The position numbers and the translations under genes were made by a program. A stretch of 64,000 nucleotides of DNA from Deltaproteobacteria bacterium (lineage in GTDB: Bacteria; Desulfobacterota; Binatia; Binatales; Binataceae): assembly GCA_021780225.1 (NCBI GenBank), contig JAJXZF010000033.1, positions 1 to 64,000 of the forward strand. The letters run 5' to 3'. Shown piece after piece: positions 11,505-57,565 of this stretch (position 1 is the first letter of the stretch; each line of letters opens with the position of its first letter). The notes below the pieces were generated by a model, which did no database searches, was not told the origin of the DNA, and worked only from the letters and a program-made list of their open reading frames with translations.

Positions 11505-11951
11505 ATGCGCGCGATTGTTCAACGGGTCAGTTCGGCCGAGGTTCGGGTCGGCGGCCGCATCATCAGCAAAATCGGCCGGGGATTCGCCGTGCTGCTCGGC
11601 GTGACTCACGACGATAGCGAGGCCGACGCGGATTACCTCGCCGATCGGATCGCCGGGATGAGAGTTTTTGCGGACGCGGCCGGCAAGATGAATCTGGCGC
11701 TCGCGGCCGTGGGCGGCGCGGTGCTGGCGATTTCGCAATTCACGCTCTACGCCGACGCCAGCCAGCGCCGGCCCTCGTTCGTCGCGGCGGCGGCGCCCGA
11801 ACCGGCGCGCCGCCTGTACGAATGCTTTGTCTCGCGCCTGCGCGCGCGCGATGTTACCGTGGAGACGGGCGAGTTCGGGGCACACATGGAGTTGGCGCTG
11901 GTCAACGACGGTCCGGTTACAATCATCCTGGACAGCCGGGAACGCCGCTAG
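11505..11951 (+). CDS. dtd: D-aminoacyl-tRNA deacylase
   Basis: A 148-residue protein that hydrolyses D-aminoacyl-tRNA and glycyl-tRNA(Ala). The start MRAIVQRVSSAEVRV, the SQFTLYAD motif (about residues 80-87) and the catalytic NDGPVTIILDS loop near the C-terminus are intact. The gene ends in TAG at 11949-11951, and the G of this stop is also the first base of repeat copy A; the protein end (SRERR) is therefore set by the insertion. Length is normal for the family, so the insertion did no harm. Confidence 0.95.
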   Translation: MRAIVQRVSSAEVRVGGRIISKIGRGFAVLLGVTHDDSEADADYLADRIAGMRVFADAAGKMNLALAAVGGAVLAISQFTLYADASQRRPSFVAAAAPEPARRLYECFVSRLRARDVTVETGEFGAHMELALVNDGPVTIILDSRERR

Positions 11952-12134
11952 TGTGGTGTCCCGCAAATAAATTCCACCTGACGCCTTGTCGGCTCCGCGC
12001 GCAGGCCGCCCAGCGCGGGGCGACTTGGGATGGATTGCCGGGTCTGGGCACGGCAATGACGCACAGCGTTTGTCATGCCCGGACTTGATCCGGGCATCCA
12101 GGCGGAGCGCAAACTTATCCAGGGGACGCCACAC
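11951..12134 (+). mobile_element. MITE-like stop-codon element, copy A
   Basis: A 184-bp copy. The left end GTGTGGTGTCCCGC follows directly on the TA of the dtd stop codon; the right end is GGACGCCACAC, its inverted repeat with one mismatch. Inside are two hairpins, GCCGGG/CCCGGC-like (partly decayed here) and a perfect CCCGGACTTGATCCGGG. It lacks about 20 bp near the right end that other copies have. The right flank is TG, not the TA seen at copies C and D, so one base may have changed. No transposase is encoded. Confidence 0.85.
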
Positions 12135-12173
12135 TGGCCGGCTCGTTAGATTCCTTCGGAGATTATAAAAGCG

Positions 12174-12659
12174 ATGGCGCGGGCAGGATTTTACGCGGTC
12201 GAGTCGGGCAAAATTTCGTTCCGCCGCGACGGCCATTGGTACAATGACGAGGAACGCATCGAGAATCCGCGCATCGCGCTGCTCTTCAGCCGCAGCCTCA
12301 AGCGCGCCGCCGACGGCGGCTTCTACCTGCAGGTGGCCGAAGAGCGCGCGCCGATTACGATCGAGGACACGCCCTACGTCGTGGTCACCGTCGAGGACGC
12401 GCCGGACGGCGGCGTGATCGTCGTCACCAACGACGAGGAACGCGAACCGCTCGATCCCGCGACGCTCGCGGTCGGCTCCGGCCACGTTCTGTATTGCGCG
12501 GTCAAAGGCGGCCAGTTCCGCGCGCGCTTTCTGCGCTCGTCCTATTTCCATCTGGCCAACCGCTTCGTCGCCGAGGATGGCGGCAGGAGCTTCGCGATCG
12601 AAATCGGCGGCCGACGCTATCCGATTCGGTACGACGCGGCCGCGAACAATCCTTCCTGA
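12174..12659 (+). CDS. DUF1285 family protein
   Basis: A 161-residue soluble protein. YAVESGKISFRRDGHWYNDE, then IENPRIALLFSRSL, and GFYLQVAEERAPITIEDTPY with VVVT match the DUF1285 layout, a two-domain beta-rich family of unknown function. It starts at ATG 12174, 40 bp after repeat copy A, so dtd and this gene are separated by the insertion. It overlaps or abuts trmL downstream. Confidence 0.72.
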   Translation: MARAGFYAVESGKISFRRDGHWYNDEERIENPRIALLFSRSLKRAADGGFYLQVAEERAPITIEDTPYVVVTVEDAPDGGVIVVTNDEEREPLDPATLAVGSGHVLYCAVKGGQFRARFLRSSYFHLANRFVAEDGGRSFAIEIGGRRYPIRYDAAANNPS

Positions 12660-12666
12660 CACCAAA

Positions 12667-13161
12667 TTGGCGACGCGCGCGGCTCCGACCTTCAATATAG
12701 TGCTGGTGCGGCCCGAGATTCCGCAGAACTCCGGGTCGATCGGCCGGCTGGCCGCGGCGGCCCAAGCGCGGCTCCATCTGGTGGGCCCTCTCGGCTTCTC
12801 GCTCGAAGATCGCTATCTGAAGCGCGCCGGCCTCGATTACTGGCCATACGTCGATTTGCGCGTCTATCGCGATTGGGCGGAGTTTGACGCGCTCCATCAG
12901 ACGATGCGTTCGCTCGCCTTTCGGTATTTCTCGGCGCGGGCGGAAAAAACCTATCTCGCGGCGGATTATCGGGCCGGCGATTTTCTTGTCTTCGGCAGCG
13001 AGACCAAGGGTCTCGGCGCGGAATTCCTCGAGCCCCGCGCCGGCGACGCCTACCGGATTCCAATCTTCGAACCGGGCGTGCGCAGCCTGAATCTCGCCAA
13101 CGCCGTTTCGATCGTTTTGTACGAAGGTCTGCGCCGCGCGAATTTTCTCGATCGCGAGTGA
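12667..13161 (+). CDS. trmL: tRNA (cytidine/uridine-2'-O)-methyltransferase TrmL
   Basis: A SPOUT-class methyltransferase that 2'-O-methylates nucleotide 34 in tRNA-Leu. Motifs are VLVRPEIPQNSGSIGRLAAA, LHLVGPLGFSLEDRYLKRAG, DYWPYVDL, FGSETKGLG and the SAM-binding knot region RIPIFEPGVRSLNLANAVSI. An open frame runs back to 12577 inside the DUF1285 gene, but similarity begins near FNIVLV. TTG at 12667, 8 bp past the DUF1285 stop, is the best start and gives 164 residues, the normal length. Confidence 0.9.
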   Translation: MATRAAPTFNIVLVRPEIPQNSGSIGRLAAAAQARLHLVGPLGFSLEDRYLKRAGLDYWPYVDLRVYRDWAEFDALHQTMRSLAFRYFSARAEKTYLAADYRAGDFLVFGSETKGLGAEFLEPRAGDAYRIPIFEPGVRSLNLANAVSIVLYEGLRRANFLDRE

Positions 13162-13174
13162 CTCCTGGGTTGCG

Positions 13175-14377
13175 TCAGCGCTGCGAACGCCGGCCCAAGC
13201 TCAGGACCAGCGCGCCGCCGATCGCCGAAAGCGACGAGCCTGTCAAAATGGCAAGCTTGGCTTCCTCGACCATCGCGCTCTGATAGCCGAAAGCTAACTG
13301 CGCGATAAACAGCGACATCGTAAATCCAATCCCGGCCAACATCCCGAGACCGACGAGCGTCCGCCCCGCCATCCCGTCCGGCAGCTCGCCGACGCCCGTG
13401 CGGACGGCCAGCAACGTCGCGCCAATCACTCCAATCGGCTTGCCCAAGAGCAGGCCGAGGGCCGTGCCGGCGGCGGCGGGCGCAGCCGCCGCCGCGAAGC
13501 CAAGGCCACCGAAGCTTAACCCGGCATTGACAAGCGCGAAGATCGGCAGAATCGCGAAATTGACCCACGGATTCAGCAGATGCTCCAGATGACGGAGCGG
13601 CGAGTCGCCGCCGCGGTCGGGATGCGTTTCAAGCGCGAGAAAATCATCCACGCCGGCGGCCGCCGGGCGTGATCGTCCGGGCACGCAAAGCCCGATCACC
13701 ACGCCGGCGATCGTCGGATGCACTCCGCTTCGGAAAACCGCGCCCCACAAGACCGCGCCGATCGTCAAATACGGCCAGAGCCGCCTGACGCCCGCCCAAT
13801 TTATCGCGATCAGCGCGGCGGCGGCGATCGCCGCGACGCCCATGGCGCCGATCGCAAACGTCTGGCCGTAAAACAAACCGATCACCAGTATCGCGCCAAG
13901 GTCGTCGATAATCGCGAGCGCCGTAAGAAACGCGAGCGCCGCCGGCGGCACGCGCGAACCCAGCGCGCGCATCACGCCCAACGCGAACGCGATATCGGTC
14001 GCCATCGCGATTCCCCATCCGTGGGCGGCGCCGCCGCGCCCCGCGATCGCCGCGTAAATCGCGATCGGCACGATCATGCCGCCGGTCGCCGCGATCGCCG
14101 GGGTCGCCGCCGCACGCACAGTGTTCAATCTGCCGGCGGTCAATTCATATTTGATTTCAAGGCCGACCTGCAGGAAGAAAACCGCCATCAGAAGGTCGTC
14201 GACCAGATGCGGGATGGAGGCGTACGCCTCGAACGATCCGATCCGCAGTCCGATTTGCGCCTGGCGGAATGCATCGTAGATGTGGGACCAGGGCGAGTTC
14301 GCCCACGCTAGCGCAATCAGCGCGGCGCCCAGCAGCATCGCGCCCGGCAACCCCTCCCATTCGACTATCCGCTTCAT
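13175..14377 (-). CDS. nhaA: Na+/H+ antiporter NhaA
   Basis: A 400-residue membrane protein with about 12 hydrophobic segments. It exchanges protons for sodium across the inner membrane. NhaA signatures include VDDLLMAVFFLQVGLEIKYE, GWGIAMATDIAFALGV (with D128) and LTALAIIDDLGAI, where D158-D159 correspond to the ion-binding pair D163-D164 of E. coli NhaA. Its C-terminal GIGFTMSLFIAQLAF is also typical. It converges with trmL. Repeat copy B lies 89 bp upstream of its start. Confidence 0.95.
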   Translation of the reverse strand: MKRIVEWEGLPGAMLLGAALIALAWANSPWSHIYDAFRQAQIGLRIGSFEAYASIPHLVDDLLMAVFFLQVGLEIKYELTAGRLNTVRAAATPAIAATGGMIVPIAIYAAIAGRGGAAHGWGIAMATDIAFALGVMRALGSRVPPAALAFLTALAIIDDLGAILVIGLFYGQTFAIGAMGVAAIAAAALIAINWAGVRRLWPYLTIGAVLWGAVFRSGVHPTIAGVVIGLCVPGRSRPAAAGVDDFLALETHPDRGGDSPLRHLEHLLNPWVNFAILPIFALVNAGLSFGGLGFAAAAAPAAAGTALGLLLGKPIGVIGATLLAVRTGVGELPDGMAGRTLVGLGMLAGIGFTMSLFIAQLAFGYQSAMVEEAKLAILTGSSLSAIGGALVLSLGRRSQR

Positions 14378-14466
14378 CCGGCGCGCATGCGGGCGCGATC
14401 AAATTTCGCGGCGGCGAAACCGCCCCGCGACCATTCAAACTTATGGCGCGTACGAATTCCGATCCA

Positions 14467-14668
14467 GTGTGGCGGCCCGCAAATAACTTCCACCTGAGGC
14501 CTTATCAACTCGATACGCAGGTCGCCCACCGCGGGACGGCAAGGGAGGGATTGCCGGGTCCATGCCCGGCAATGACGAACCGAGCTGGTCATGCCCGGAC
14601 TTGCTCCGGGCATCCACGCCGAGCGCAAGATCGACGCGGAGTGCAAACTTATTCAGGGGACGCCACAC
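14467..14668 (+). mobile_element. MITE-like element, copy B (intergenic)
   Basis: A 202-bp copy of the same element as at 11951. The ends are GTGTGGCGGCCCGC and GGACGCCACAC. Both hairpins are present: ATTGCCGGG...CCCGGCAAT and ATGCCCGGA...TCCGGGCAT. This is the only copy not placed at a stop codon; it lies between the nhaA start and the downstream end of the 14712-15200 gene. The flanks are CA and CG, not TA, so either the target differed or the flanks have changed. Confidence 0.85.
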
Positions 14669-14711
14669 CGGGCCGCGCGCGAAAATCCCGCTTCGTCGGC
14701 CGCGCCCGACT

Positions 14712-15200
14712 TCAGGCGCCATGCGCGCCGCCCGGCCCGTCAGATTCGGTTTTGGTTCGCGGCACCGCGCCAAACGGCGTGATCTTGAAGTCACTCGCGT
14801 CTTTCACTTCGGGCGTCCTGAGCGCCCAGTAAAACGCGATGATCCATCCCGCCACCGTCCAGCCAAAACATAGATTCAACACGAAAACGTTCTGATAATT
14901 GGCTTGCCCGAGGCTGATTGCCGCGATCGTCGGCAAAAAGTAAACCACCACCGCAAGCGCCGGAATCGCTACAAACAGCAGCGTGTCGCCCCAGGTTCGC
15001 TGATCGGTAAGCGGCATCACCGCAAGACTGCACAGGAACGCAAAACTGACGATGAAGGTCCAAAGTTTGTGCTCCGGCGCCAGTTCGAGCAGCCATCCGG
15101 CCGATGACGCCAAGAGCGACGCGACAATCAGCGCCACCACGATTGACAGAGCAAGAGTGGCGAGCCATTCGACGAATGCCGGATCGTTGAAAATGCCCAT
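14712..15200 (-). CDS. Superinfection immunity family small membrane protein
   Basis: A 162-residue protein with several hydrophobic segments. The region YFLPTIAAISLGQANYQNVF followed by VLNLCFGWTVAGWIIAFYWA matches the superinfection-immunity membrane family first seen in phage T4 Imm and widespread in bacteria as an uncharacterised housekeeping or phage-derived protein. The N-terminal 90 residues are extra membrane segments. No phage genes are nearby, so an anti-phage role is not implied. Confidence 0.65.
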   Translation of the reverse strand: MGIFNDPAFVEWLATLALSIVVALIVASLLASSAGWLLELAPEHKLWTFIVSFAFLCSLAVMPLTDQRTWGDTLLFVAIPALAVVVYFLPTIAAISLGQANYQNVFVLNLCFGWTVAGWIIAFYWALRTPEVKDASDFKITPFGAVPRTKTESDGPGGAHGA

Positions 15201-15428
15201 GGCGCAACTTGACCGCTGTTTAGCGTGACCGCTGGTTTAATTAGCGCTTATAGTGAAATAGGTCAAACGTCCGCTACAAAGATAAAAATAGCTAAACTGG
15301 CGCCCCTCCCCGATTAAAAAATCAGTTTCGCCGCTATTTGCCAGTCGGCGAATGCTTCCCCTCAACTCGCGCAAACAGTTATGCGACGTATTGGATATAC
15401 TTGATGCCTGTCGCAATCGCGCACGCCG

Positions 15429-16451
15429 ATGATTGATACGTCCATCGCTCACGAATCGTTGCAGGAGGCGCCGCCTGTAGCGGCGCGGCCGATCAACCCG
15501 CGGCGCCATTACGCCGGCGATCTCATCGCTGTCGTCTATATCGGCGCAATCGGCCTGATCGCCGCGCTGAGCGGCGCCATCTATGTTTTGTTTCCCGAAT
15601 TGGGCGCGCTCTCTTGGGACGTGATGCGGCGGCCGCATGGCCGCTGGGGTTCGGCGCCTCTCATGTTGGCGATTACGCCCGCGCTGACCGGCGCGGCCGG
15701 CACGATCGCGACCCGCAATCTGCCGTATGGATTCGTCTCGGTCATGATCGTCGTCTGCGCGTCGATTTTAATTCTGCGGGCGACGCGCTCTCCCATCGCG
15801 CCGGCAATCTCCGCGGGCTTGCTGCCGCTGGTACTCGGCGTCACCAGTTGGTGGTATCCGCCCGGCGTCTTGCTGGGCTCGACGGTGCTGGCGATTCTGC
15901 TGCTCGGATGGCGCCGGTCGTCGCCGCTCGAAAACACGCTCCTTGCGTCTGTGACACGGCGCGACGCCGGGCTTGAATCCGAGCCGCATTTTGAATCGTT
16001 GATCGCGCTAAATTGGCTCGCTCCGTTGCTGATTTTCGTCTTGAGCGCGACTGCGATGGTCGATCTGACCGGGATGCGCTTTATCTTGTTTCCGCCGCTC
16101 GTCGTGTTGCTGTACGAGATGTTCCACGATCCCGATCGATGCCCATGGACGCCCCACCTGGGGCGGCTGCCTGTGGTATGTTTCGCTGCGGCCCTCGGCG
16201 GTTTCCTAATCCATCAGCAGGTTCCGTTGATTCCGCTGGCGGCGGCGCTGAGCATGGCCTGGGGCGTGATCGTCCTGCGCATTTTCCGGACCAACGTGCC
16301 GCCCGCGCTAGCCGTCGCGTTGTTGCCGATGGTAATCGACCATCCGACGGTTCTTTATCCGATTTCCGTCGGCATCGGGATCGCTGCCGGCACCCTTTGG
16401 TTTGTGGTTATCCGAAGATTTCTCACGCCTTCACATGAACTTCACGTCTGA
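15429..16451 (+). CDS. Polytopic membrane protein, possibly HPP-like
   Basis: A 340-residue protein with about ten hydrophobic segments arranged as two similar halves. LLPLVLGVTSWWYPPGVLLG in the first half and MRFILFPPLVVLLYEMFHDP in the second resemble HPP-family segments, with FPP and a following Asp-Pro. VALLPMVIDHPTVLYPISVG near the C-terminus repeats the LLPLV...YP pattern. Transport substrate is unknown. Start ATG 15430-region (MIDTSIAHESL) has no close upstream gene; a 228-bp gap separates it from the divergent immunity-family gene. Confidence 0.55.
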   Translation: MIDTSIAHESLQEAPPVAARPINPRRHYAGDLIAVVYIGAIGLIAALSGAIYVLFPELGALSWDVMRRPHGRWGSAPLMLAITPALTGAAGTIATRNLPYGFVSVMIVVCASILILRATRSPIAPAISAGLLPLVLGVTSWWYPPGVLLGSTVLAILLLGWRRSSPLENTLLASVTRRDAGLESEPHFESLIALNWLAPLLIFVLSATAMVDLTGMRFILFPPLVVLLYEMFHDPDRCPWTPHLGRLPVVCFAAALGGFLIHQQVPLIPLAAALSMAWGVIVLRIFRTNVPPALAVALLPMVIDHPTVLYPISVGIGIAAGTLWFVVIRRFLTPSHELHV

Positions 16452-16556
16452 AGCAGGCGACATGGCGCTCGATGTTCCTTCGCCTGAATGGATTTAAACC
16501 ATCGCGGAAGAAAGCTTGGCGCCAGAAAATCCTGCATCGTCATTATCTTGGGCAGG

Positions 16557-16581
16557 TTCGCGAATTTTCGGAATTCGCGAA
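16557..16581. repeat. 10-bp inverted repeat, intergenic hairpin
   Basis: TTCGCGAATT and AATTCGCGAA flank a 5-base loop, TTCGG, in the 246-bp gap between the membrane protein and the TPR gene. It is followed by a run of seven As on the plus strand and does not have the T-run of a plain terminator on either strand. It could be an RNA hairpin in the 5' leader of the TPR gene or an operator. Confidence 0.55.
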
Positions 16582-16697
16582 AAAAATTCACAGTCGGGTT
16601 TAAGCCGACTTAATATGCGATTCGAAGATTTTTCCAATGCTTACGGATACTCGAGGGGTGCGGCGCGAAAGGCGCCGAATTTGCTTGAGTTGAAGTC

Positions 16698-17405
16698 GTG
16701 CGATCGATGGCTCGAATCGCGGCAGTCGCGCTTTTCATCATCGCGGCGCCTCTTGCGCTTACGACGCTCGCGCGCGCGACGGACTTGGTTTGCGATCCGG
16801 CCGCCGATTACTACCTCGGTCAAGAAGACTACGCCAACACGATCGCGGCGCACCGGCGCCTGATCGCGACGAATCCCGACGACGCGCTCGCGCATTACCA
16901 TCTTGGATTCGCCTACGCCATGACCGGCCAGCGGCAGGCGGAACTCGCCGAATATCGCAAAGCCGCGGCGCTGGGCCTGCGGCAATGGGACTTTGAACTT
17001 AATTTCGGCCGCGCGGAGCTTGAAAGCGGCGATCCCGCGGCGGCGGCCGGCTCATTTCAGCAGGCGATTGCGCTCGCTCCGCGGCGGCCGGAGGGCTATT
17101 TCAATCTTGGCCTCGCGGACGAACGCCGCGGGATGTATCAGCAGGCTCTGGACGCCCTGACCGCCTCGCTGGCGCTGGATTCCGACCAACCCGATGCGCG
17201 CAACATGCTCGGCGTCATCTACGCGGAAAAGGGCGACTACGCACGCGCTCGTGAAATATGGACGCGGCTGGCTCATTCCGCACCCGATTTTGCTCCAGCC
17301 CGCGAAAATCTGGCTGCGCTTGATCGGATGACGGAAACGCCCAAAACTCCGCCGGGCCGCGATCGATCGCCCTTTCGCACCGCCCTTGCCGGCGACCTTC
17401 GCTGA
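16698..17405 (+). CDS. Secreted TPR repeat protein
   Basis: A 235-residue protein with a signal peptide (MRSMARIAAVALFIIAAPLA, cut near ARA). It has about five tetratricopeptide repeats: YANTIAAHRRLIATNPDDA, HYHLGFAYAMTGQRQAELAE, FELNFGRAELESGDPAAAAG, GYFNLGLADERRGMYQQALD and NMLGVIYAEKGDYARAREIW. TPR arrays are protein-binding scaffolds; the partner is unknown. The second cysteine-containing segment after the signal (LVCDPAADYY) is not a lipobox. It probably acts in the periplasm. Confidence 0.8.
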   Translation: MRSMARIAAVALFIIAAPLALTTLARATDLVCDPAADYYLGQEDYANTIAAHRRLIATNPDDALAHYHLGFAYAMTGQRQAELAEYRKAAALGLRQWDFELNFGRAELESGDPAAAAGSFQQAIALAPRRPEGYFNLGLADERRGMYQQALDALTASLALDSDQPDARNMLGVIYAEKGDYARAREIWTRLAHSAPDFAPARENLAALDRMTETPKTPPGRDRSPFRTALAGDLR

Positions 17406-17487
17406 ATCTCAACCCGCCCGCGCTCACGCGGATTCGCCCCGCCGGCGCGACGCCGCGTGACAGCGCTCGCATCAGACGCCCTTTCTA

Positions 17488-17691
17488 GTTTGGCGTCCCC
17501 TGAACAAGTTTGCGCTCCGCGTCGATCTTGCGCTCGGCGTGGATGCCCGGATCAAGTCCGGGCATGACACCAACGCTGTGCGTCATTGCCGGGCCCAGAC
17601 CCGGCAATCCATCCCTTGCCGCCCCGCGCTGGGCAACCCGCGCGCCGAGCTGATCAGGCGTCAGGTGGAAGTTATTTGCGGGACACCACCC
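17488..17691 (-). mobile_element. MITE-like stop-codon element, copy C
   Basis: A 204-bp copy read on the minus strand. Its left end GGGTGGTGTCCCGC joins the TA of the stop codon of the outer-membrane gene at 17692-17693, making TAG. The right end GGGGACGCCAAAC is followed by TAG on the minus strand, so TA is present on both sides: a clean TA target duplication. Both hairpins are perfect or nearly so. The original site reads as the gene's own TAG stop. Confidence 0.9.
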
Positions 17692-18638
17692 TAGAAAAAC
17701 GGGATGCGCATCGTGACCAGCCATTGATGATTGAACGTGCGCGCCTGAGTCGCCGCGAATTGCAGACCCGCGCCCAGCACGAAATAGGCATGCTGGCTCA
17801 GCCTGAAGCGCCCGAGAATCAGGCCGGGCGTCAGGTAAAGCTGCTGCTGGCCGCGCGTCTCGCCGTTCGGATAAGAGACCCATGTGGTCTCGAATTCCGG
17901 CCAGACCGGAATCACGAATCCGTCAAGGCTGAATTTCCGCCCGTACTGGAAGGCGCTGTTCCATCCGATCGGCGTGCCCAGCTTTCCGGCCTCGCCATCC
18001 GGCACGGAGGGACCGATAGTCGCTTGATAGTCGAACTCCCCGAAGCGCGTCTCGAACCCTTTGCCGAAGCCGAGCATCGGCGTGAACACGTCATGATTGG
18101 CTGAAACATATTTATTCGAGCCGGTCGCGAAGCTGTTGCCGAGCAGGAAGGTCACGACATAATTCCCGGCGTCGCTCGGCGAAGCGAGAATCCGGTACTT
18201 GAACAGAAACGTCCAATCGCCCCATCCCGAAGTCTGCTTGTCCGCCGGAAGATTTTTCGTGACGTAAACCGGATTGCCGAAAATCAACTCGGTGTTTTCG
18301 GTCGGAATGATCTCGGCGCCCTTGCTGGCGTAGGTGAAAGTTTGCAATCCGTGCGGCGCGAAGGCGAACCCGTAATCGGTGCGGATTTCCTGCTGCAGCG
18401 TGGGAATTATGGTCACCACCGGCGTCATCCAGTCCGGCTGCTCGTATTCGTGGGTGCGATGGACCATGTCGAGCCAGCGGTTGTAATAGCCGCCGAGCGT
18501 ATCGAGCAGCGAAAAATTCGCTGGCGCCGCCGCGCTCTGCTGCGCCAGCGCGACCGCGGACGGCAGGCTCAAGATTGCGCCGGCCAGCGCCGCGCCGGCG
18601 ACAAAAGCGAGTTTTCGGAAGAGCGAAACTGATTTCAT
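17691..18638 (-). CDS. Outer-membrane beta-barrel protein (phenol-degradation MetA-like family)
   Basis: A 315-residue protein. ATG 18638 gives MKSVSLFRKLAFVAGAALAG, a good signal peptide ending near ALAQQ; an upstream ATG would only add 6 residues. The mature part is rich in alternating beta-strand patterns and aromatic residues (FAPHGLQTFTYASKG, WGDWTFLFKYRILASPSDAG, YVVTFLLGNSFATG) and ends with MRIPFF, a typical C-terminal aromatic barrel signature. It resembles the MetA-pathway/transporter-annotated barrel family. Its stop codon is completed by repeat copy C. Confidence 0.75.
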   Translation of the reverse strand: MKSVSLFRKLAFVAGAALAGAILSLPSAVALAQQSAAAPANFSLLDTLGGYYNRWLDMVHRTHEYEQPDWMTPVVTIIPTLQQEIRTDYGFAFAPHGLQTFTYASKGAEIIPTENTELIFGNPVYVTKNLPADKQTSGWGDWTFLFKYRILASPSDAGNYVVTFLLGNSFATGSNKYVSANHDVFTPMLGFGKGFETRFGEFDYQATIGPSVPDGEAGKLGTPIGWNSAFQYGRKFSLDGFVIPVWPEFETTWVSYPNGETRGQQQLYLTPGLILGRFRLSQHAYFVLGAGLQFAATQARTFNHQWLVTMRIPFF

Positions 18639-18968
18639 GGCCGCGCATGATGCCATTATAAAAGCTAAATGACAAGTATTATGGCTTTCTCACGTATGAA
18701 TTCGGACGTCCATTCCGAGCGTGTCGCCAAAGAGGTGATGCGCGTGTTCGATTCGCAGCGGGCCGAGAGCCGCCAAATTCCCTAACGAGCGGCTTCAGAG
18801 TAGAGTGACGGAAAATTTTATCGCTGAGGATCTGGAAAGACCCGACGAAGCATGAACCAAAGCGGCCTTGACCTGGGGACAGGCTCGCTGATCCAGGTCG
18901 GCGCTCATTGACCGCAACGCGAAAATGGACAGGGGCTGAGAGGTTCAGGGTAGCGGCGCTGGTGGCGG
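18639..18968. other. Intergenic 330 bp before the methylase gene
   Basis: The stretch starts with the outer-membrane gene's leader (TTATAAAAGCTAAATGACAA), then carries a small broken reading frame at 18681-18855 (listed separately). The remaining 110 bp before the methylase start show no clear gene. No convincing controller-protein box was found ahead of the methylase. Confidence 0.5.
18681..18855 (+). pseudogene. Small broken reading frame upstream of the methylase
   Basis: From ATG 18681 the frame gives MAFSRMNSDVHSERVAKEVM, then RVFDSQRAESRQIP and a stop at 18785. Removing one base from the CCC run before that stop lets it continue as NERLQSRVTENFIAEDLERP and DEA to a stop at 18855, making a 57-residue, helix-rich protein. 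The total of 175 nt is one more than a multiple of three, as this requires. No family is recognised. The reading is suggestive only, but it fits with the other broken genes in this island. Confidence 0.4.
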
Positions 18969-19828
18969 ATGGGAACGTCACGCTTCACGTTTATTGATCT
19001 CTTTTGCGGAATTGGCGGCATGCGCCTTGGGCTGGAATCCGCCGGTTGCGAATGCCTGTTCTCGTCCGATTGGGACGCGCCTGCGCAGAAGACTTATGCC
19101 GAGAATTTCGGCGAGCGACCCTGCGGCGACATTCGCGCGATAGCGTCGTCCGAGATTCCGGATCACGACATTTTCGCGGCCGGATTTCCGTGTCAGCCAT
19201 TTTCAATTTCTGGCGTGTCGAAAAAGAACAGCCTCGGCCGCGCACATGGGTTCCGTGACCAAACCCAAGGGACCCTTTTCTTCGAGGTGAAGCGAATAAT
19301 TCGCGACCGGCGGCCTGCTTCGTTCCACAGCATCGCGAGCGCGTTTATCTGGTCGGATTCAGGGAGCCTCGATATTTCGATTGGCCAGTTTTCCCGGCCG
19401 GCGAGACTACTATCTCGGAAATTCTCGAAGACCAGGTCGATCCGAAATACACCCTGAGCGATCGCTTGTGGGCATACCTTCAGGATTACGCAAAGAAACA
19501 TCGCGAAGCGGGTAACGGATTCGGACTGGTCCGCAAAGATGGTATTGCCCGAACGCTGAGTGCAAGATACTACAAAGACGGATCCGAGATTCTCGTGCCC
19601 CAAGGTCGTGCCAACCCCCGTCGGCTGACACCCCGCGAATGTGCGCGGCTGATGGGGTTCGCGGACTCTTTCAGGATACCCGTTTCAGATACCCAAGCTT
19701 ACAAGCAATTCGGCAACTCGGTAGTTGTTCCACTTGTCTCCGCGCTGGCGAAACAAATCGTCAGAGCGCTGACCACGCCGGCGGCCCGCATGCCGAAACA
19801 GATGCGCCTGTTGCGAAGCGTATCTTGA
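18969..19828 (+). pseudogene. Dcm-type DNA (cytosine-5) methyltransferase, internal deletion
   Basis: The first part reads FTFIDLFCGIGGMRLGLESA (SAM motif I) and FAAGFPCQPFSISGVSKKNS, with the catalytic PCQ cysteine, as far as RIIRDRRPA. The frame then shifts: from about 19311 another frame gives [20 protein letters not shown], the later QRRER-type motif VIII, the recognition region, and [11 protein letters not shown] and QFGNSVVVP (motifs IX and X), ending at 19828. In related enzymes about 45-50 residues lie between these, including the catalytic ENV motif; they are missing. The total of 860 nt is not a multiple of three. Features such as GNGFG and [16 protein letters not shown] fit the Dcm/EcoRII/MvaI-site group. 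Not functional as read. Confidence 0.88.
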
Positions 19829-20309
19829 CGAAGCGCCAACGGGCGCTCGATTCGAACGTGGCTGACATAGTAGCGCCTGCCGTCCGCAGCCGCATGATGG
19901 CCGGGATCCGGGCCAAGCATACCAGGCCGGAATTATTGATCAGGCGCGGACTTCACGCCTGCGGATTCCGCTTCCGGCTGCACCAGCGAAACCTGCCCGG
20001 TAAGCCTGACCTTGTCCTGGCGAAATACCACGCGGCCATATTCGTCAATGGTTGCTTCTGGCACTGCCACGACTGTGAACTGTTCAGATGGCCGGCTAGC
20101 CGCGAGGCCTTCTGGCGGCGAAAGCTTTTGTCAAACCGCGAGTCAGACAAAGTGGTCCGGAATGAGCTGTTGCAAGCCGGCTGGCAGTTTTGACCATATG
20201 GGAATGCGCTATCAAGGGTAGACATCGCCGTAGTGAACAGGAAATAATCCGCCGTTCGGCGAAATGGATTCGATCGCGCCGCCGAAATTACGAAATCCGC
20301 GGAAGCTGA
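19825..20309 (+). pseudogene. vsr: Very short patch repair endonuclease Vsr, frameshifted
   Basis: Vsr nicks 5' to T:G mismatches made when m5C deaminates in methylated sites, so it partners m5C methylases. The frame starts at TTG 19825 overlapping the methylase stop (TTGA), or GTG 19858. It reads VRSRMMAGIRAKHTRPELLI, LPGKPDLVLAKYHAAIFVNG, and CFWHCHDCELFRWP, with the metal-binding residues. It stops at 20191-20193 right after QAGWQF. Adding one base to the TTTT run before that stop gives LTIWECAIKG, the conserved final strand, and a natural stop at 20309. The 485-nt span plus one is a multiple of three. So a one-base loss has broken the C-terminus. Confidence 0.88.
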
Positions 20310-20368
20310 AACCCGATTCAGCCAGAGTGAGCAGATAAATCGCCACGCTCGCAAAAATAGGCGCGCTG

Positions 20369-21719
20369 ATGGCGGCAGCCGGCGTTGAGCGTCTTTACAT
20401 CAAGCGGCTCGCGCCTAATGACAACTCCAAAAATCAGGTTTACCTCGGTTCCGACTTCGAGGCGCTCAATATCCTGCCCAATCAGGGAGTTCGCGCTGAA
20501 AGCGAGGGCCGTTCGAAAATTTTCAGGGCCGCGATCAGTTTTTTCTGGCTCAATACCGACGGCGAACTCGACGCGGCGCGCGGGACCCAACTAATCCTTT
20601 ATCCGCAATATCCCGAAGTTCGAATGTCTGGGTTTCTGAGGGGCTGCCGGAAAGCCCCTTCAACGATTATGACGAGCCGTGATCCCGGCCGCGTTCTACT
20701 TCTGGGCGTCCGCAACGACGGCAAGCTGGTCGGATTCGCCGCCGCGGCTGACAGCGCCATATCCAGAGAACTCGAGGATATGCGCGATCTTCCCGAAGTC
20801 GGGGTCTTCAACGAAGTTCCACTTCGTTCGAAGAGCGATTCGCGCCTTCGCCTGCTCGCGGAACTGCGGCGAATAAGCCATGCGGGCTGGATCAATTCCA
20901 AACGACTCCTTGCCTCCGGCGAGCTTGGACCATGCGCGGCGCCGAACTGCGGCGGATACACGCTCGAAGCCGAAATGGGTATTCTTCCCAATAGCCTGTC
21001 CGAACCCGATTTCGAAGGTTGGGAACTCAAACAATTCGGCGTTTCACGACTGGACCATTTCGAGACCGGGATCCTCACCCTTATGACCCCCGAACCTACG
21101 GGTGGATACTACCGGGAACGCGGCGTCGAAGCGTTCATACGGCGCTTCGGCTACCGAGACAAACGCGGCCGGCCAGACCGGATGAATTTCGGGGGCATCC
21201 ACCGCGCCCGGATGAAACACGCGGAAACGCGGTTGACCCTCACGCTCCATGGCTACGAACGCTCGTCAGGGAAAATCGCCGACCCATCGAGCGGAGTCTG
21301 CCTCATGTCGGACGAGGGTGAATTCGCGGCATTATGGCGGTACGACGACCTGATGACCCACTGGAACCGCTTGCAACTGGTAAATTATTTACCAGTTAGC
21401 GCGCTTATGGCGGTACGACGACCTGATGACCCACTGGAACCGCAAGCATGCTCGCGCGGCTTACGTGCCATCAGTACGAAGGAGCGATCCCGACCTGCAA
21501 TATCGTTTCGGCTCATCCATCCGTCTTGGGGAAGGAACGGATTTCCTGCTTTTCCTCAAAGCACTTGACCAAGGCGCCGTCTATTACGATCCGGGCATCA
21601 AACTGGAGCATGCTTCCTCCACACAAGCTTCGACGAAACGACGAAGCCAGTTCAGGGTCAGGTCGCGAGACCTCTCCGCGCTTTACAACCGCCTTGAAAC
21701 GCTCAACCTTGCGGAATAG
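20369..21719 (+). pseudogene. MvaI/BcnI-type restriction endonuclease, insertion-disrupted
   Basis: Family hallmarks: RLAPNDNSKNQVYLGSDFEA near the N-terminus, then GGYTLEAEMGILPNSLSEPD with the nuclease core SEPDFEGWELKQF (an Asp, then Glu-x-Lys), and LMTPEPTGGYYRERGVEAFI with GRPDRMNFGGIH. These enzymes cut CCWGG or CCSGG, matching the Dcm-like methylase. At 21371 the frame is broken by a 73-bp insertion. Removing the 73 bp restores one frame to 21719 (425 residues), which ends LSALYNRLETLNLAE. The active-site residues are intact, so only the C-terminal domain is lost. Codons before the ATG (GALMAAAG) still look coding, so the true start may be lost. Confidence 0.88.
21332..21443 (+). repeat. 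39-bp direct repeat around a palindromic spacer
   Basis: An identical 39-bp sequence (starting TTATGGCGGTACGACG and ending ACTGGAACCGC) stands at 21332-21370 and 21405-21443. Between them is a 34-bp spacer, 21371-21404, not found elsewhere in the gene, with an 11-bp inverted repeat AACTGGTAAAT, one T, ATTTACCAGTT. The insertion is 73 bp (39 plus 34), which explains the frameshift in the restriction nuclease gene. Confidence 0.95.
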
Positions 21720-21867
21720 TCCAAAAGCTCGGTCAATCCGAACTCGGCCCATAGAGAATTTCAGGCGAAAGCCACAATAAAAGCGGCGGCCGGAGGGACG
21801 CGACCGCCGTGCGATCGCGAACCATCCGCCCGCCGTCGATGCGGACGCTCTCGTTAGAACAGGGTTA

Positions 21868-22069
21868 TTGTGGCGTCCCGCGAATAAGTTTGCACTCCGC
21901 GTCCATCTTGCGCTCGGCGTGGATGCCCGGATCAAGTCCGGGCATGACCAGCTCAGTTCGTCATTGCCGGGCCCAGACCCGGCAATCCATCCCTTGTCAC
22001 CGTGCGGTGGGCGGCCTGTGCGCCGAGCTGATCAGGCGTCAGATGGAAGTTATTTGCGGGACACCACAC
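21868..22069 (-). mobile_element. MITE-like stop-codon element, copy D
   Basis: A 202-bp minus-strand copy. Its left end GTGTGGTGTCCCGC begins in the stop codon TAG of the FBP aldolase/phosphatase gene (TA at 22070-22071). Its right end is followed by TA (minus strand CCACAA then TAACCC), so TA occurs on both sides and the ancestral stop would have been TAA. The right TIR is TTGTGG instead of GTGTGG. Both hairpins are intact. Confidence 0.9.
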
Positions 22070-23217
22070 TAGGCGGCCTTTTTCTTGCGACCATTGCCGG
22101 CCGCGGCCTGAATTTCGTCTTTGCGCACGATAAACCGCTCGTCGAGCTGGCCCATCTTTTCGACCACGCCGCCGTATTCGAGCTCGCTGTACGGCAGCAT
22201 CGCGGGGCCAGAGAAGCCCTGATTGCGGATTTCCGCCGCCTTCTGCGAGATGTTGTTGCGCACCCAATCCCAGAAGGGATGGTCGAAGGCGTCGACCGGC
22301 TCCGTAAATTTGCCGTTGTGCACGCAGAACGCGGCGGCGCTGACGATCGCCGGCCCGTCGAAGAATGAAATCGTCGAATTCAGCTTCACCGGCATCAGCG
22401 GACCGTTATGGCTGCCGCGCATCGTGCCCGCGACGTAATGGCCGATGCGGAAGGGCGAGAGGATTTCGCCGGTGGCCGGAAAGTTGCCCTGCGTGCGCAC
22501 CAGCGCGACCGGATCGTCCTTGCCGGTGTAGGTGCCGGCGATATTGTGCAGGCGCGAGGTCGAAACCACGGCCGCGACGTCGTTGTTGGCGCGGCTGCGA
22601 ATCGATTCGACGACGAAGCGCTCGTTGTCGCGCAGCAGGCAGGCGATATCGTAAATCTCCTCGGGCGCATTCAGCTCGATCACGCGGTCGCCCTCGGTGT
22701 GATTAACGTCCATGATCGTGAAGGTGAAACCCTTCGCCATCTTGGGCGACAGCAGCAAGCCCGCGCAGTGCATCGGATCGCAGAAGGCGAGGTAGAGCGG
22801 CAGATTGTACGCGCCCGGATCGGTCTTGTCGGCGGCGAAGAAAATGAACGGCTCGTTGGGGCGCTCCTCGAATTCCATTTCGCACGAGGCCGGACCGAGG
22901 CCGCGAATATTGCCGGAGAAGGCGTCTTTCAGCAGATCCTGCCCGGCGCCATAGAGGCCCTGCTCTTTGGCGACTTTGGTGCCGGCCATGAAGGCGTCCC
23001 ACGCCAGCTCATGGATTTTTGAATCGTTGACGCCCCGGTCGTGGGTCATCAACAGCGCAACGTCGTCGCCGGTGGAGCTGACGTACAGATCGCTCAGCAG
23101 CCGCTTGCCCTTGTCGCGAACGAACTGTTCGACGGCCTGCTTGAGCTTCGCGCTCGGCTTGATATGCCCGCCGATCGATCCAACGTCGGCCTTGATTACT
23201 GACAACGTGGTTTTCAT
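22069..23217 (-). CDS. fbp: Fructose-1,6-bisphosphate aldolase/phosphatase (class V)
   Basis: A 382-residue bifunctional enzyme known from archaea and deep-branching bacteria. It condenses triose phosphates and dephosphorylates FBP in gluconeogenesis. The start MKTTLSVIKADVGSIGGHIK puts D11 and H18 exactly where the family has metal ligands. The pair D51-D52 (SSTGDDVAL) and the loop Y230-x-x-K233-D234-D235 (GTYTGKDDP) match the catalytic Tyr, Schiff-base Lys and Asp pair of the Sulfolobus enzyme. KADKTDPGAYNLPLY-type and GEILSPFRIGHYV regions also match. The protein ends KKKAA; its stop codon is completed by repeat copy D. It lies next to the dead restriction island. Confidence 0.93.
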   Translation of the reverse strand: MKTTLSVIKADVGSIGGHIKPSAKLKQAVEQFVRDKGKRLLSDLYVSSTGDDVALLMTHDRGVNDSKIHELAWDAFMAGTKVAKEQGLYGAGQDLLKDAFSGNIRGLGPASCEMEFEERPNEPFIFFAADKTDPGAYNLPLYLAFCDPMHCAGLLLSPKMAKGFTFTIMDVNHTEGDRVIELNAPEEIYDIACLLRDNERFVVESIRSRANNDVAAVVSTSRLHNIAGTYTGKDDPVALVRTQGNFPATGEILSPFRIGHYVAGTMRGSHNGPLMPVKLNSTISFFDGPAIVSAAAFCVHNGKFTEPVDAFDHPFWDWVRNNISQKAAEIRNQGFSGPAMLPYSELEYGGVVEKMGQLDERFIVRKDEIQAAAGNGRKKKAA

Positions 23218-23289
23218 TGGTTTAGCGCCTCCGATCCTGAACTCGGCTTATAGATTTCCACCGCACTTCGCGAGACCGGCCGCCGCGAA

Positions 23290-23547: not shown

Positions 23548-23693
23548 TGGATTTCTTTATAGTAGTTTTCCGTCCGCTGGCAAAGCAACCGCCGCTCTAT
23601 GAACGCGCCGCGCCATGCTAATTTTGCGGCAAGGCGCGTCATCGCGGCGCCAATCCATATTCGACCGAGCAGAACTGTGCGAGAAGCCGCCCG

Positions 23694-24422: not shown

Positions 24423-24437
24423 TCCGATTTTTCCGGC

Positions 24438-41344: not shown

Positions 41345-41364
41345 CGCGCTCGCAAGAGCGGCTC

Positions 41365-41670: not shown

Positions 41671-41678
41671 ACGCCGCG

Positions 41679-42143: not shown

Positions 42144-42161
42144 ATCAATCCCTCCCGCGCT

Positions 42162-47380: not shown

Positions 47381-47383
47381 CGC

Positions 47384-49261: not shown

Positions 49262-49374
49262 CAGCGATCGAACCGAACGGATTGGTCGATCTTAGCCCGG
49301 CGCTTGCCGCCATTCGAACGCTAAATTATAAGGTACGACGATTTAGCCGGCGCCACCCGGCGGGCGGCGCCGTA

Positions 49375-50499: not shown

Positions 50500-50748
50500 A
50501 CCGCACTGCTTTCGCCAGAGCCGTGCCAACCGCAAACGCGCGATTTTCAGCCGCTTTTGGCCATCCAAACCCGATTGTGCGCGCAAATGGGATGGTCCGT
50601 TTACGATTTGGGGAGATTTTATCCTGCCGAATGCCGCTTGCGGTCAGAGCAAATTTTTTGCAAAATGCAAATTATAGACTCTTGTAGATTGACTGCTGTT
50701 TGTCTGACGAAGTTAAGCGCTCACCCGCCGATCGCAACCAAATTTCTA

Positions 50749-52469: not shown

Positions 52470-52473
<4 letters not shown>
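50749..52473 (+). CDS. NtrB-like sensor histidine kinase
   Basis: A 574-residue soluble kinase. Residues about 70-205 form a helical sensor ([34 protein letters not shown]), like the globin-fold RsbR N-terminal group. A PAS domain lies at about 212-320 ([40 protein letters not shown]). HisKA follows with the phospho-acceptor H349 in [16 protein letters not shown]. The ATPase has [20 protein letters not shown] and [20 protein letters not shown] with [17 protein letters not shown]. No transmembrane helices. It overlaps the sigma-54 activator downstream by 4 bp (ATGA), so the two are a two-component pair. Confidence 0.9.
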
Positions 52474-53921
<1,448 letters not shown>

Positions 53922-53946
53922 CGAGAAAGCGCAGACGACGCGCGGG

Positions 53947-54705: not shown

Positions 54706-55087
54706 ATAACGCGTCGGCGAATCTAAATTAGCGGTTTAATCCTTCGAGTTCGCGATATTTAACGAATGAGCTTCGGGAATCACTTGAATTCGACGGCTTT
54801 CGGTCCGCGGTGGATTATACGCTTGCGCTCGCGGCGGACAATCTCGACAAAACTTTCGTCTTCGCACCACGTCGCCAACGCATACATCCTCGAGAGACTG
54901 GCCAAGCTTCAATTCTAGCCGGCTGCCGAGCCGTGCGCATAGAGACGAAACCTGGCGAATCGTTTCTGGATATTCTTCAAATTGGAAGCGCAACCGGCGA
55001 GCTGTGCGATGGGCGTGGCGTTTAGACGCCGGCGCGGTTAGAATTGAATGAATCGAACGGCCGGGGAAACCGGTCCGGAGCGGAACT
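54706..55087. other. Intergenic region, 382 bp
   Basis: Between the divergent TylF-like gene and tatA. The first 40 bp are AT-rich (TTAGCGGTTTAATCC), probably promoter DNA for the methyltransferase. A short plus-strand open frame at 54810-55025 has no family-like sequence and is not called. No RNA gene or repeat was seen. Confidence 0.5.
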
Positions 55088-55306
55088 ATGGACATTCTTG
55101 CGCCAACCCATCTGTTGATCTTGCTGCTGATCGTGTTGGTCATTTTCGGTCCGAGCAAACTCGGAGATGTTGGCGGAGCGCTCGGCCGCGCGATTCGCGA
55201 CTTCAAGCAGGCGATGAACGAGCCGGACGGAGCCAAGAACGCGACCGCAAGCGCCGATCAAACCGCCGCTTCCACCGCTGAACCGAAAGCCGACAAACCC
55301 GCCTGA
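55088..55306 (+). CDS. tatA: Sec-independent protein translocase TatA/E
   Basis: A 72-residue protein. The short N-terminal transmembrane helix (THLLILLLIVLVIFGPSKLG), with the FGP hinge, is followed by the amphipathic helix VGGALGRAIRDFKQAMNEPD. The tail is disordered. It forms the pore of the twin-arginine export system for folded proteins. tatB and tatC are not in the window. Confidence 0.93.
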   Translation: MDILAPTHLLILLLIVLVIFGPSKLGDVGGALGRAIRDFKQAMNEPDGAKNATASADQTAASTAEPKADKPA

Positions 55307-55793
55307 AACGGGCGATCGTTTCGAGTCGAAAAGCCTGCGGCCGGCTCGGAAAAGGTCCGCCCGAACGATAATTCCAGGCATCCTCCGCCCGACCGGGCCG
55401 ATCGTCCCGCGCACGTTGATTAATCACGACGTTTAAGTAATCTAGCGCGCGAATGCGCGTGCGGCGCATCCGGGGAGGCGCCGTGAGCAAGCTGTTTCGA
55501 TATGGCGGATGGACGGCGGTCGCCTCGTGGGGTTTTCCGGTCACGCCCGCGGAGATGGCCGCGCTGGCGGCCGGTCACGACGGGCGGAATCGATGCTGCT
55601 GAAGCCATCGAATTCCCGAATCTGGAATTTTTCCTAGGTATTTTTCCTTAATCGATTAGGTATTTTCCGGGTCCGCATTAGCAGGAATCCGGGTTTTGCC
55701 GCGAGCGAGGCCGCGCTAGCCTTCGATTGTCTTTTTCGCGAACTCTTCGCCCTCGCTCCGGGGCGGAGGCTGCGAGAGAGCTCAGGAGGCATC
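55307..55793. other. Intergenic region, 487 bp
   Basis: Begins with the tatA trailer and ends with a good Shine-Dalgarno (CTCAGGAGG) before the kinase at 55794. A 39-residue frame at 55483 is listed separately. The stretch near 55620-55690 is AT-rich (TTTTTCCTAGGTATTTTTCC, TAATCGATTAGG), including the palindromic CCTAGG and ATCGAT hexamers, and looks like a promoter region. No clear RNA gene. Confidence 0.45.
55483..55602 (+). CDS. Possible small protein, unknown function
   Basis: A GTG-started 39-residue frame: VSKLFRYGGWTAVASWGFPV, then TPAEMAALAAGHDGRNRCC. A GGGGAGGC lies about 4 bases before the GTG. Amino-acid use is protein-like, but no family is recognised and the frame is too short to be sure. 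It could also be the 5' end of a degraded gene. Confidence 0.3.
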   Translation: MSKLFRYGGWTAVASWGFPVTPAEMAALAAGHDGRNRCC

Positions 55794-56678
55794 ATGGAAA
55801 ACCAATCTACAGCGCCGTTCGTTGCCTCCCAATTGAACGAACGATCAGGCAGCCGGCGAATCGCCCGCATCTGGAGCCACGGAGTACGGCTCGAAGCGAT
55901 CGCGAATCTGGCGCACGAATTACGCACGCCGGTGCAGGTTTTACTCGGATATCTGGAAATTCTCCGCGACGAATACGGCGACCAATTGACGCCCAAACCG
56001 CGCGAATTGATCGAACGCATGAACGCGAACGTCCACGATCTCGCGCAGACGATCGAGAATGTGATGCATTTCGTGCTCGCCGAAGCGGGGGCCGAATCGA
56101 TCGTCGATGAAGACCTGTCAATCGAGGGACTGATTGCGGAAATCACGCCCACGCTCGAAGCCGCGAATCAGCATAAGGACCTTCGCCTCGATTTCGACGT
56201 GCGTTCCGCGCCGAAACGGATCAAGGCGTCGCGCCGCGCGCTGCGATCAATAATCCTCAATCTTGGGCTTAATGCGATCAAGTTCACCGAAAGCGGCGCC
56301 GTGCGTGTGGAAATTCGCCGCGCGGCCGCAGCGAATATGCTCGAACTGAAATTGACCGACACCGGGCCCGGCATGAATCCACTGCTGCTCGCGGAAGCGA
56401 CGCGTCCGTTCGCACAACTGTCGAACAGCCGCGCCCGGCGCTACCGGGGTCTGGGCTTGGGTCTGGCGGTGGTGCAGCGGCAAATCGCGGCGATGAACGG
56501 CCAACTGGAATTGCGCCCGCGCGAAGGCGGCGGATCGATATTCGTGGCGACGGTGCCGGTCAAGATCGTCGAGGAAGTCGCGCGTCCGGCGCGGACCCCG
56601 ATTGCGCATCGCAAGCCCGCGCAAGTTCCGCCGCCGGCTCCCGCCGCGCATCGCAAACCCGCGCGAAATCCGCTCTAA
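55794..56678 (+). CDS. Stand-alone soluble sensor histidine kinase
   Basis: A 294-residue kinase with no sensor or membrane domain. HisKA has LEAIANLAHELRTPVQVLLG (H41); the ATPase domain has ALRSIILNLGLNAIKFTESG (N box), LKLTDTGPGMNPLLLAEATR (G1) and RRYRGLGLGLAVVQRQIAAM (G2). After about 255 the C-terminus is a Pro/Ala/Arg-rich tail with two HRKPA repeats, likely disordered. No response regulator is adjacent. A strong SD, AGGAGG, precedes the ATG. It may act on an unlinked regulator. Confidence 0.88.
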   Translation: MENQSTAPFVASQLNERSGSRRIARIWSHGVRLEAIANLAHELRTPVQVLLGYLEILRDEYGDQLTPKPRELIERMNANVHDLAQTIENVMHFVLAEAGAESIVDEDLSIEGLIAEITPTLEAANQHKDLRLDFDVRSAPKRIKASRRALRSIILNLGLNAIKFTESGAVRVEIRRAAAANMLELKLTDTGPGMNPLLLAEATRPFAQLSNSRARRYRGLGLGLAVVQRQIAAMNGQLELRPREGGGSIFVATVPVKIVEEVARPARTPIAHRKPAQVPPPAPAAHRKPARNPL

Positions 56679-56758
56679 CCCGCGCTTCGACCGGCCGCGC
56701 TCGTCGCGCGCCCATCGCCGGGACGACCGCGCTCAACCAAAGTAAAAATTTGCGCTTG

Positions 56759-56960
56759 GCGTGGCGTCTCCTGAATAAATTTGCACTCCGCGTCTATCTT
56801 GCGCTCGGCGTGGATGCCCGAATCAAGTCCGGGCATGACCAACGCTGTTCGTCATTGCCGGGCCCAGACCCGGCAATCCATCCCTTGCCGCCCCGCGCTG
56901 GGCGATCTGCGCGCCGAGCTGATCAGGCGTCAGGTGGAAGTTATTTGCGGGACACCACCC
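56759..56960 (-). mobile_element. MITE-like stop-codon element, copy E
   Basis: A 202-bp minus-strand copy. Its left end GGGTGGTGTCCCGC completes the TAG stop of lexA (TA at 56961-56962). Its right end is GGAGACGCCAC, with one extra base and no TA at the far flank (GCCAAG), so that side has decayed. Both hairpins are present. Except for these ends it matches copies C and D closely. Confidence 0.85.
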
Positions 56961-57565
56961 TAACGATAATGGCGCATCAGTCCGACGACCACGCCGCGGA
57001 TGCTCAAGTTGTCCTCGTCAACGAAAATCGGCTCCATCGTCGGGTTTGCCGGCTGCAAGCGTATCCGTCCGCCGCCCTCGGGATAATATTTTTTGACCGT
57101 GGCTTCGCCGTCGATTAGCGCGACCACGGTCTCGCCCGCATTCGCCGACTCGCGGCTTTCCACGATAATGTAATCGCCGTCGCGGATGCCCTCGTCGATC
57201 ATCGACTCGCCGCGCACGCGCAGACAAAAGGTCGCGTCGCGCCTGACGAACTCTTCGGGCACGGCGATCGTGTCGCGCGCCTCTATCGCTTCGATCGGCG
57301 CGCCCGCCGCGACCAGGCCGAGCAGCGGCAGATCGCGCGCGCCAGCCGGTCCCGCGCCGGCGATCTCCAACGCGCGGCTGTGATTGTGGGTTCGGCGGAT
57401 CGCGCCTTTCTGCTCGAGATTCCGCAGATGCTTGTGCACGGTCGCCAGCGACGACAGCCCGAAATATTCGCCCATCTCGGCCAGAGTGGGCGCGTAACCG
57501 TGCTCTCCGATATAATCGTTAAGGTAATCGACCATCTGCTTCTGCCGCTTGGTCAGGGTCGCCAT
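56960..57565 (-). CDS. lexA: LexA repressor, SOS regulator
   Basis: A 201-residue repressor-protease. The winged HTH covers about residues 1-65 (TKRQKQMVDYLNDYIGEHGY, APTLAEMGEYFGLSSLATVH). Self-cleavage is at A87-G88 in LVAAGAP. The protease dyad is S121 (VRGESMIDEG) and K158 (EATVKKYY). The frame reaches back to 57619, but MATLTKRQKQ at 57565 is the natural start. The stop is completed by repeat copy E and the protein ends normally (VVVGLMRHYR). No LexA box was found upstream by eye. Confidence 0.95.
   Translation of the reverse strand: MATLTKRQKQMVDYLNDYIGEHGYAPTLAEMGEYFGLSSLATVHKHLRNLEQKGAIRRTHNHSRALEIAGAGPAGARDLPLLGLVAAGAPIEAIEARDTIAVPEEFVRRDATFCLRVRGESMIDEGIRDGDYIIVESRESANAGETVVALIDGEATVKKYYPEGGGRIRLQPANPTMEPIFVDEDNLSIRGVVVGLMRHYR

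What the first reader, a model, noticed from the sequence alone, without database searches (positions are those of the whole stretch)
11949..56962. A five-copy MITE-like element placed in stop codons of four genes
Copies A, C, D and E (dtd, the outer-membrane gene, the FBP aldolase/phosphatase gene, lexA) begin exactly after the TA of the stop codon, so TA plus the element's first G make TAG. The host protein is unchanged. Always the same element end faces the gene, although both ends begin with G and could in principle do this. C and D have TA on both sides (target duplication), consistent with a Tc1/mariner or IS630-type MITE. Four of five at one codon is far from random. It may be strong target preference, selection for harmless sites, or use as a 3' UTR module.
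Basis: partly seen in the sequence, partly recalled or inferred. Interest (0 to 1): 0.85.

Follow-up and report, generated by a model that had tools for sequence, protein, structure and literature searches.

The report
Mobile mini-element that restores stop codons
A short non-coding jumping element has spread to more than a hundred places in one bacterial genome, and about half of the copies sit exactly on the stop codon of a gene, because it likes to insert at the letters CTAG and its own first letter rebuilds the stop codon, so the gene's protein is unharmed.

Summary
The five repeats are real; four (A, C, D, E) start exactly in a TAG stop codon. In the window's own genome (relatives named Candidatus Binataceae) I delineated 113 copies, a few partial, then 13 more, 7 partial. 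Of the 113, 58 lie on a stop codon: 34 by the left end, 25 by the right, one by both; with the later 13, 61 of 126. So stop-codon placement is genome-wide, but 'always the same end' is not (p=0.30). The target is CTAG with TA duplicated: C-TA-[G...C]-TA-G (70 of 113 reconstructed targets). Same-genus genomes hold element-free sites with a stop at the same place for all four genes. An IS630-type IS with matching ends sits in another genus, a partial one in the same genus. CTAG is scarce; 16 of 70 empty CTAG sites are stop codons. Target choice, near-absence from genes, and the element's terminal G explain most of the pattern. A 2.5-fold excess at stops over intergenic CTAG remains (p=0.012). 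Two internal palindromes are unusually conserved. Verdict: an IS630-type MITE with a neat stop-restoring niche.

The parts
11949..12136 (+). Copy A (186-bp type, shorter inside): TA + element 11951-12134 + TG; first G completes the TAG stop of dtd (11505-11951 +)
   Evidence: Pfam PF02580; element-free CTAG in G003
14465..14670 (+). Copy B, not at a called stop codon; flanking dinucleotides CA / CG
17486..17693 (-). Copy C with TA on both sides; first G completes the TAG stop of a 321-aa gene (17691-18656 -)
   Evidence: no Pfam match; element-free TTAG stop in G003 and G004
21866..22071 (-). Copy D with TA on both sides; first G completes the TAG stop of the FBP phosphatase (FBPase_3) gene (22069-23217 -)
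   Evidence: PF01950; element-free GCCGCC-TAG in G001 and in the named MAG of L212
56757..56962 (-). Copy E; TA / CA flanks; first G completes the TAG stop of lexA (56960-57619 -)
   Evidence: PF00717/PF01726; element-free CTAG in G003 and G004
21959..21988 (-). Palindrome P1 of copy D (approximate: consensus positions 84-113 counted from 22071)
   Evidence: coordinates projected from the consensus
21921..21948 (-). Palindrome P2 of copy D (approximate: consensus positions 124-151; the exact 25-mer is at 21922-21946)

Best explanation
The repeat is a non-autonomous IS630-type MITE of about 202 bp. Its ends read GTGTGGYGTCCC..., and it was probably mobilised in trans by an IS630 transposase acting on the same ends. 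It inserts at the TA of CTAG and duplicates the TA, giving C-TA-[G...C]-TA-G. CTAG is scarce in this genome, and a good share of the CTAG sites outside elements is the end of a gene (NNC-TAG). When the element inserts there, its terminal G takes the place of the displaced G and the codon is still TAG. This holds in either orientation, since both ends begin with G. Insertions inside genes are hardly seen, presumably because they are lost. The result is about half of the copies on stop codons. Shown: copies, ends, target, element-free sites, placement, orientation, near-absence from called coding sequence. Inferred: trans-mobilisation, and the loss of insertions in genes by selection.
For: 113 copies delineated, 13 more. 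The reconstructed target is CTAG in 70 of 113; TA is intact on both sides in 65 of 113. 58 of 113 are at stops, 34 by the left and 25 by the right end; one other gene runs 15 nt into an element. Empty CTAG sites: 38 intergenic, 16 stop, 16 in CDS of 70; 212 CTAG observed, element ends included, against 1435 expected from base composition in 419 kb. CDS depletion: counting that one gene, 1 of 113 copies against 16 of 70 empty sites, p=8e-7. Element-free sites in same-genus genomes for A, C, D and E. A 1166-bp IS630 in G021, 366-codon open frame with DDE_3, ends matching left-to-left and right-to-right; a matching left end in same-genus G006 followed by a short IS630 match with one stop inside, cut by the contig end. 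The CTAG preference of IS630 is in the title of Tenzen & Ohtsubo 1991, seen in the reference list of PMC2170065. In 22 loci of relatives 23 of 33 end matches are CTAG and 6 are at called stops; one place is listed twice there, so 22 of 32 distinct ends.
Against: Stops are occupied more often than the CTAG census predicts: 58 stop / 55 other copies against 16 stop / 38 intergenic empty sites, OR 2.5, p=0.012. The other copies show no avoidance of divergent (promoter) regions that would explain this (9 of 48 copies and 6 of 27 empty sites with both neighbours known). 43 of 113 reconstructed targets are not CTAG, and the empty site at C is TTAG. The full IS in G021 has TA on the left but TG on the right. 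No autonomous element with these ends was found in the own genome: its 10 IS630 matches include elements with other ends.
Confidence: 0.88

Rival explanations
1. Co-opted 3' UTR module: copies at stop codons are kept because the hairpins act as terminators or mRNA stabilisers for the upstream gene.
For: Palindromes P1 and P2 diverge 3.0% and 1.4% from consensus, against 10.3% for the other columns of the same 89 copies; changes seen in at most 4 copies 1.4% against 2.5%, p=3e-4. An old insertion shared by G000 and G004 at one stop codon has kept both palindromes while its spacer diverged. Stops exceed intergenic CTAG 2.5-fold.
Against: Both orientations occur (34: 25). 55 of 113 copies are not at called stops. 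The four window insertions at stops are absent wherever a sister site could be compared (A, C and E in G001, G003, G004; D in G001, G003). No Rfam match in window 11900-22200. Palindrome conservation could also come from gene conversion, or from constraint on the mobile source.
Confidence: 0.12
2. The transposase or a host partner aims at stop codons or gene ends themselves (for example by meeting terminating transcription or translation), beyond the CTAG sequence.
For: 2.5-fold excess at CTAG stops over intergenic CTAG.
Against: CTAG alone, with loss from coding regions, already gives 16 of 54 non-coding sites as stops; the excess is modest, the sample of empty sites is small, and the gene caller is home-made.
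Confidence: 0.07
3. Chance or artefact: a few repeats that happen to abut stops, or over-called genes.
For: Four of five is a small sample; a few called genes have low scores.
Against: 51 of 113 remain with coding score 25 or more; three of the four window genes are Pfam-supported, and each of the four has a stop at the same place in at least one element-free relative.
Confidence: 0.01

Closest known systems
IS630 / Tc1-mariner family MITEs, e.g. RUP of Streptococcus pneumoniae (IS630-Spn1)
   Same: Short, about 100 copies (RUP 107 bp, 108 copies), terminal repeats like those of an IS630 element, insertion at TA (RUP passages in PMC2229807)
   Different: Other sequence, host and size; a CTAG target rather than TA as described for RUP; half the copies on stop codons; two REP-like palindromes inside
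IS630 of Shigella sonnei
   Same: TA in 5'-CTAG-3' preferred (title of Tenzen & Ohtsubo 1991 in the reference list of PMC2170065; the paper itself was not held)
   Different: That is an autonomous IS; I saw no statement about stop codons
BOX elements of S. pneumoniae
   Same: Repeat supplies the stop codon of genes: 36 of 58 CDSs overlapping BOX (passage in PMC3049150)
   Different: The passages read describe no stop codon restored at a TA/CTAG target; different element
REP/BIME palindromes (name recalled)
   Same: P1/P2-like palindromes occur without the transposon ends in same-genus genomes
   Different: Here they ride inside an element bounded by inverted repeats and duplicated TA

Membership tests
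IS630-type MITE | Terminal inverted repeats matching those of an IS630 element | tested here: met
   G021:C31 1166-bp IS with matching left and right ends; left end plus a partial IS630 match in G006
IS630-type MITE | TA target duplication | tested here: met
   TA on both sides in 65 of 113 copies, on one side in 38, on neither in 10; element-free sites with a single TA
IS630-type MITE | No transposase of its own, small size | tested here: met
   Mostly 203-205 bp in my count with one TA, range 184-285; too short for a transposase gene
IS630-type MITE | Many dispersed copies | tested here: met
   113 + 13 copies delineated; 3 pattern matches each in sisters G003 and G004 to the sister version, none in G001
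IS630-type MITE | Mobilised by the transposase | not testable with these tools
   needs a transposition assay
IS630 CTAG target preference | CTAG as target | tested here: met
   70 of 113 reconstructed targets; element-free CTAG at A, D and E, but TTAG at C
REP/BIME | Palindromes that occur on their own, without transposon ends | tested here: not met
   In the own genome 85 of 100 listed P2 palindromes (of 136) lie inside the 113 copies and 13 of the other 15 loci are further copies; without the ends only seen in relatives
3' UTR regulatory module / terminator | Fixed orientation to the gene | tested here: not met
   34 left, 25 right ends at stops, p=0.30
3' UTR regulatory module / terminator | Effect on transcript | not testable with these tools
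   needs RNA data

The most novel reading that the evidence does not exclude
Amber stop codons form a genome-wide safe harbour for CTAG-seeking IS630 elements whose terminal base is G: the element rebuilds the codon it lands in, in either orientation. In this lineage it has thereby delivered a conserved hairpin pair to the 3' ends of dozens of genes, where some copies are now kept by selection as 3' UTR modules.
Probability: 0.2. Interest if true: 0.7.

Novelty: new member of a known kind. Interest (0 to 1): 0.45.

Why it matters
It gives a simple, testable rule for how a transposon can multiply without harm: choose a tetranucleotide that is rare inside genes but occurs at their ends, and carry the base that repairs the stop codon. 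The rule predicts stop-codon enrichment for any CTAG-targeting, G-ended IS630 element in GC-rich genomes. It also warns annotators that a repeat may supply the last base of a stop codon. My paper searches (some with capped listings) listed no paper whose title or shown abstract start states this rule, but the library lacks most subscription journals.

Tried and rejected
An autonomous partner in the own genome was sought with NF033545: 10 matches. The IS at C78 has other ends (GTGCTTCGACCC...), those at C109 and C49 begin TATTGAGTC..., C59:74660 is cut by the contig end with no matching end found, and C62 and C21 are weak remnants.

A fixed orientation to the gene was rejected. Plain TA targeting was rejected as sufficient, because only 127 of 6752 TA dinucleotides are in stops. 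Promoter avoidance as the cause of the stop excess found no support: tandem/convergent/divergent 22/17/9 for the other copies and 12/9/6 for empty intergenic CTAG. No Rfam family in window 11900-22200.

Limits and results against. The gene caller is my own. The empty-CTAG census comes from 419 kb of fragments chosen around copies, so it is not a random sample. Listings were capped: 100 of 114 left-end places, about 100 of 156 ends, 100 of 136 P2 places, so the true copy number may exceed 126. A few of the 113 are partial (for example one with only model positions 4-45), and so are 7 of the 13 later ones. The palindrome test used 89 of 113 copies, those of 202-206 bp with near-complete model coverage. 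Two of the 15 late loci (L348, L354) were not counted as copies. At A the G004 site reads CCAG, so its stop there is lost, and several sister stops at these places are TGA rather than TAG. Element-free sites were compared in three of the six sister genomes (G001, G003, G004). Stop retention (59 of 59 stop-facing ends TAG/TAA; distal ends 31 of 57; ends of other copies 71 of 110) is largely true by definition; adding the one gene that reads into the element gives 59 of 60. In the relatives' table two of the six stop calls are short, low-scoring genes.

Full report
Observation. The repeats are real and at the stated places. The exact borders, counting the flanking dinucleotides, are A 11949-12136, B 14465-14670, C 17693-17486, D 22071-21866 and E 56962-56757. 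In A, C, D and E the TA plus the element's first G is the TAG stop of an ORF. Pfam supports dtd, an FBP phosphatase and lexA; the gene at C has no match.

Genome-wide table. The window is part of a 3.80-Mb, 118-contig genome. Named relatives of its FBP phosphatase gene include 'Candidatus Binataceae' and MAGs labelled 'Deltaproteobacteria' or 'Proteobacteria'; the placement in Binataceae is my inference. I built a profile from the five copies and delineated 113 copies, a few of them partial, in 419 kb of fetched stretches; 15 further loci gave 13 more, 7 of them partial. With a periodic Markov gene caller trained on this genome, 58 of 113 copies lie exactly on a gene's stop codon: 34 left ends and 25 right ends, one copy doing both. 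51 of 113 remain if a coding score of at least 25 is asked. Of the 13 later copies, 3 are at stops, 2 by the left and 1 by the right end, so 61 of 126; orientation 36: 26, p=0.25.

Target. The base before the left TA, the TA, and the base after the right TA read CTAG in 70 of 113 copies; TA is intact on both sides in 65. Both ends begin with G (GTGTGGYGTCCC), so a TAG stop is rebuilt whichever end faces the gene. CTAG is scarce: 212 against 1435 expected from base composition, element ends included. Outside elements there are 70 sites: 38 intergenic, 16 stop codons, 16 in coding sequence. Copies avoid coding sequence (1 of 113, the gene that reads 15 nt into an element, against 16 of 70, p=8e-7), and stops are preferred over intergenic CTAG with odds ratio 2.5, p=0.012. 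That residue is not explained.

Transposition. Three same-genus genomes (G001, G003, G004) carry the four genes without the element wherever the site could be compared. For A, G003 reads CGCCGC-TAG-GCGG; G001 has TGA and G004 has lost the stop (CCAG). For E, G003 and G004 read ATCG-CTAG-GCGC, G001 TGA. For D, G001 reads GCCGCC-TAG-CCC, G003 TGA, and a named MAG (L212) has the same CTAG stop. For C, G003 and G004 read TTT-TAG and G001 TGA, so that target was TTAG or has changed. The large expansion seems to belong to this lineage: a pattern for the sister version of the element finds 3 places each in G003 and G004 and none in G001. At least one insertion is older: at a stop codon in contig C33 (L348) both G000 and G004 carry a decayed element.

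Source. In another genus of the same family (G021) a 1166-bp element has the same ends, left-to-left and right-to-right, and a 366-codon open frame with a DDE_3 domain; its flanks are TA and TG. G006, of the same genus, has a matching left end followed by a short IS630 match with one stop inside, near the contig end. Elements with these ends and other lengths or interiors occur in G017 and G021. In 22 loci of relatives, 22 of 32 distinct ends are CTAG and 6 are at called stops, two of these weak.

Interior. Two palindromes, P1 and P2, are far less diverged (3.0% and 1.4%) than the other columns (10.3%) in 89 aligned copies. In relatives similar palindromes stand without transposon ends. This could be function, gene conversion, or constraint on the source.

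Literature. I read passages only: PMC2170065 (ISY100, TA duplication; the reference list holds the 1991 IS630 CTAG paper), PMC3049150 (BOX supplies stop codons), PMC2229807 (RUP), PMC5896051, PMC2759123, PMC3189936. Searches listed no paper whose title or abstract start describes stop codons restored by a CTAG-targeting element; some listings were capped and most subscription journals are not held.

Verdict. An IS630-type MITE whose stop-codon habit follows mainly from its CTAG target and its terminal G. Ordinary in kind, unusually clear in effect; a modest stop excess and the conserved palindromes stay open.

Noticed in passing
Consensus positions 84-113 and 124-151 of the element (e.g. copy D, about 21959-21988 and 21921-21948): The two internal palindromes are several times less diverged than the rest of the element among 89 copies.
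   Followed up: partly
L348 (G000:C33) and L178 (G004:C53): A decayed insertion shared by two species at the same stop codon, palindromes kept and spacer diverged.
   Followed up: partly
L149 (G000:C78, about 2847-4072) and G000:C10 near 39592: Another IS630-type element, ends GTGCTTCGACCC..., sits in the TA(G) at the right end of a MITE copy at C78; the same end sequence follows a MITE copy at C10.
   Followed up: partly
G000:C56:13225, C19:8912, C36:72320, C27:6546, C53:12491: Several copies share a left flank like TGTGCAGAGMTTCCC (looser at C53), probably the end of another repeat family whose border also offers CTAG.
   Followed up: no
window 21323-21448: A 53-nt direct repeat, 89% identical, start-to-start 73 nt.
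   Followed up: no
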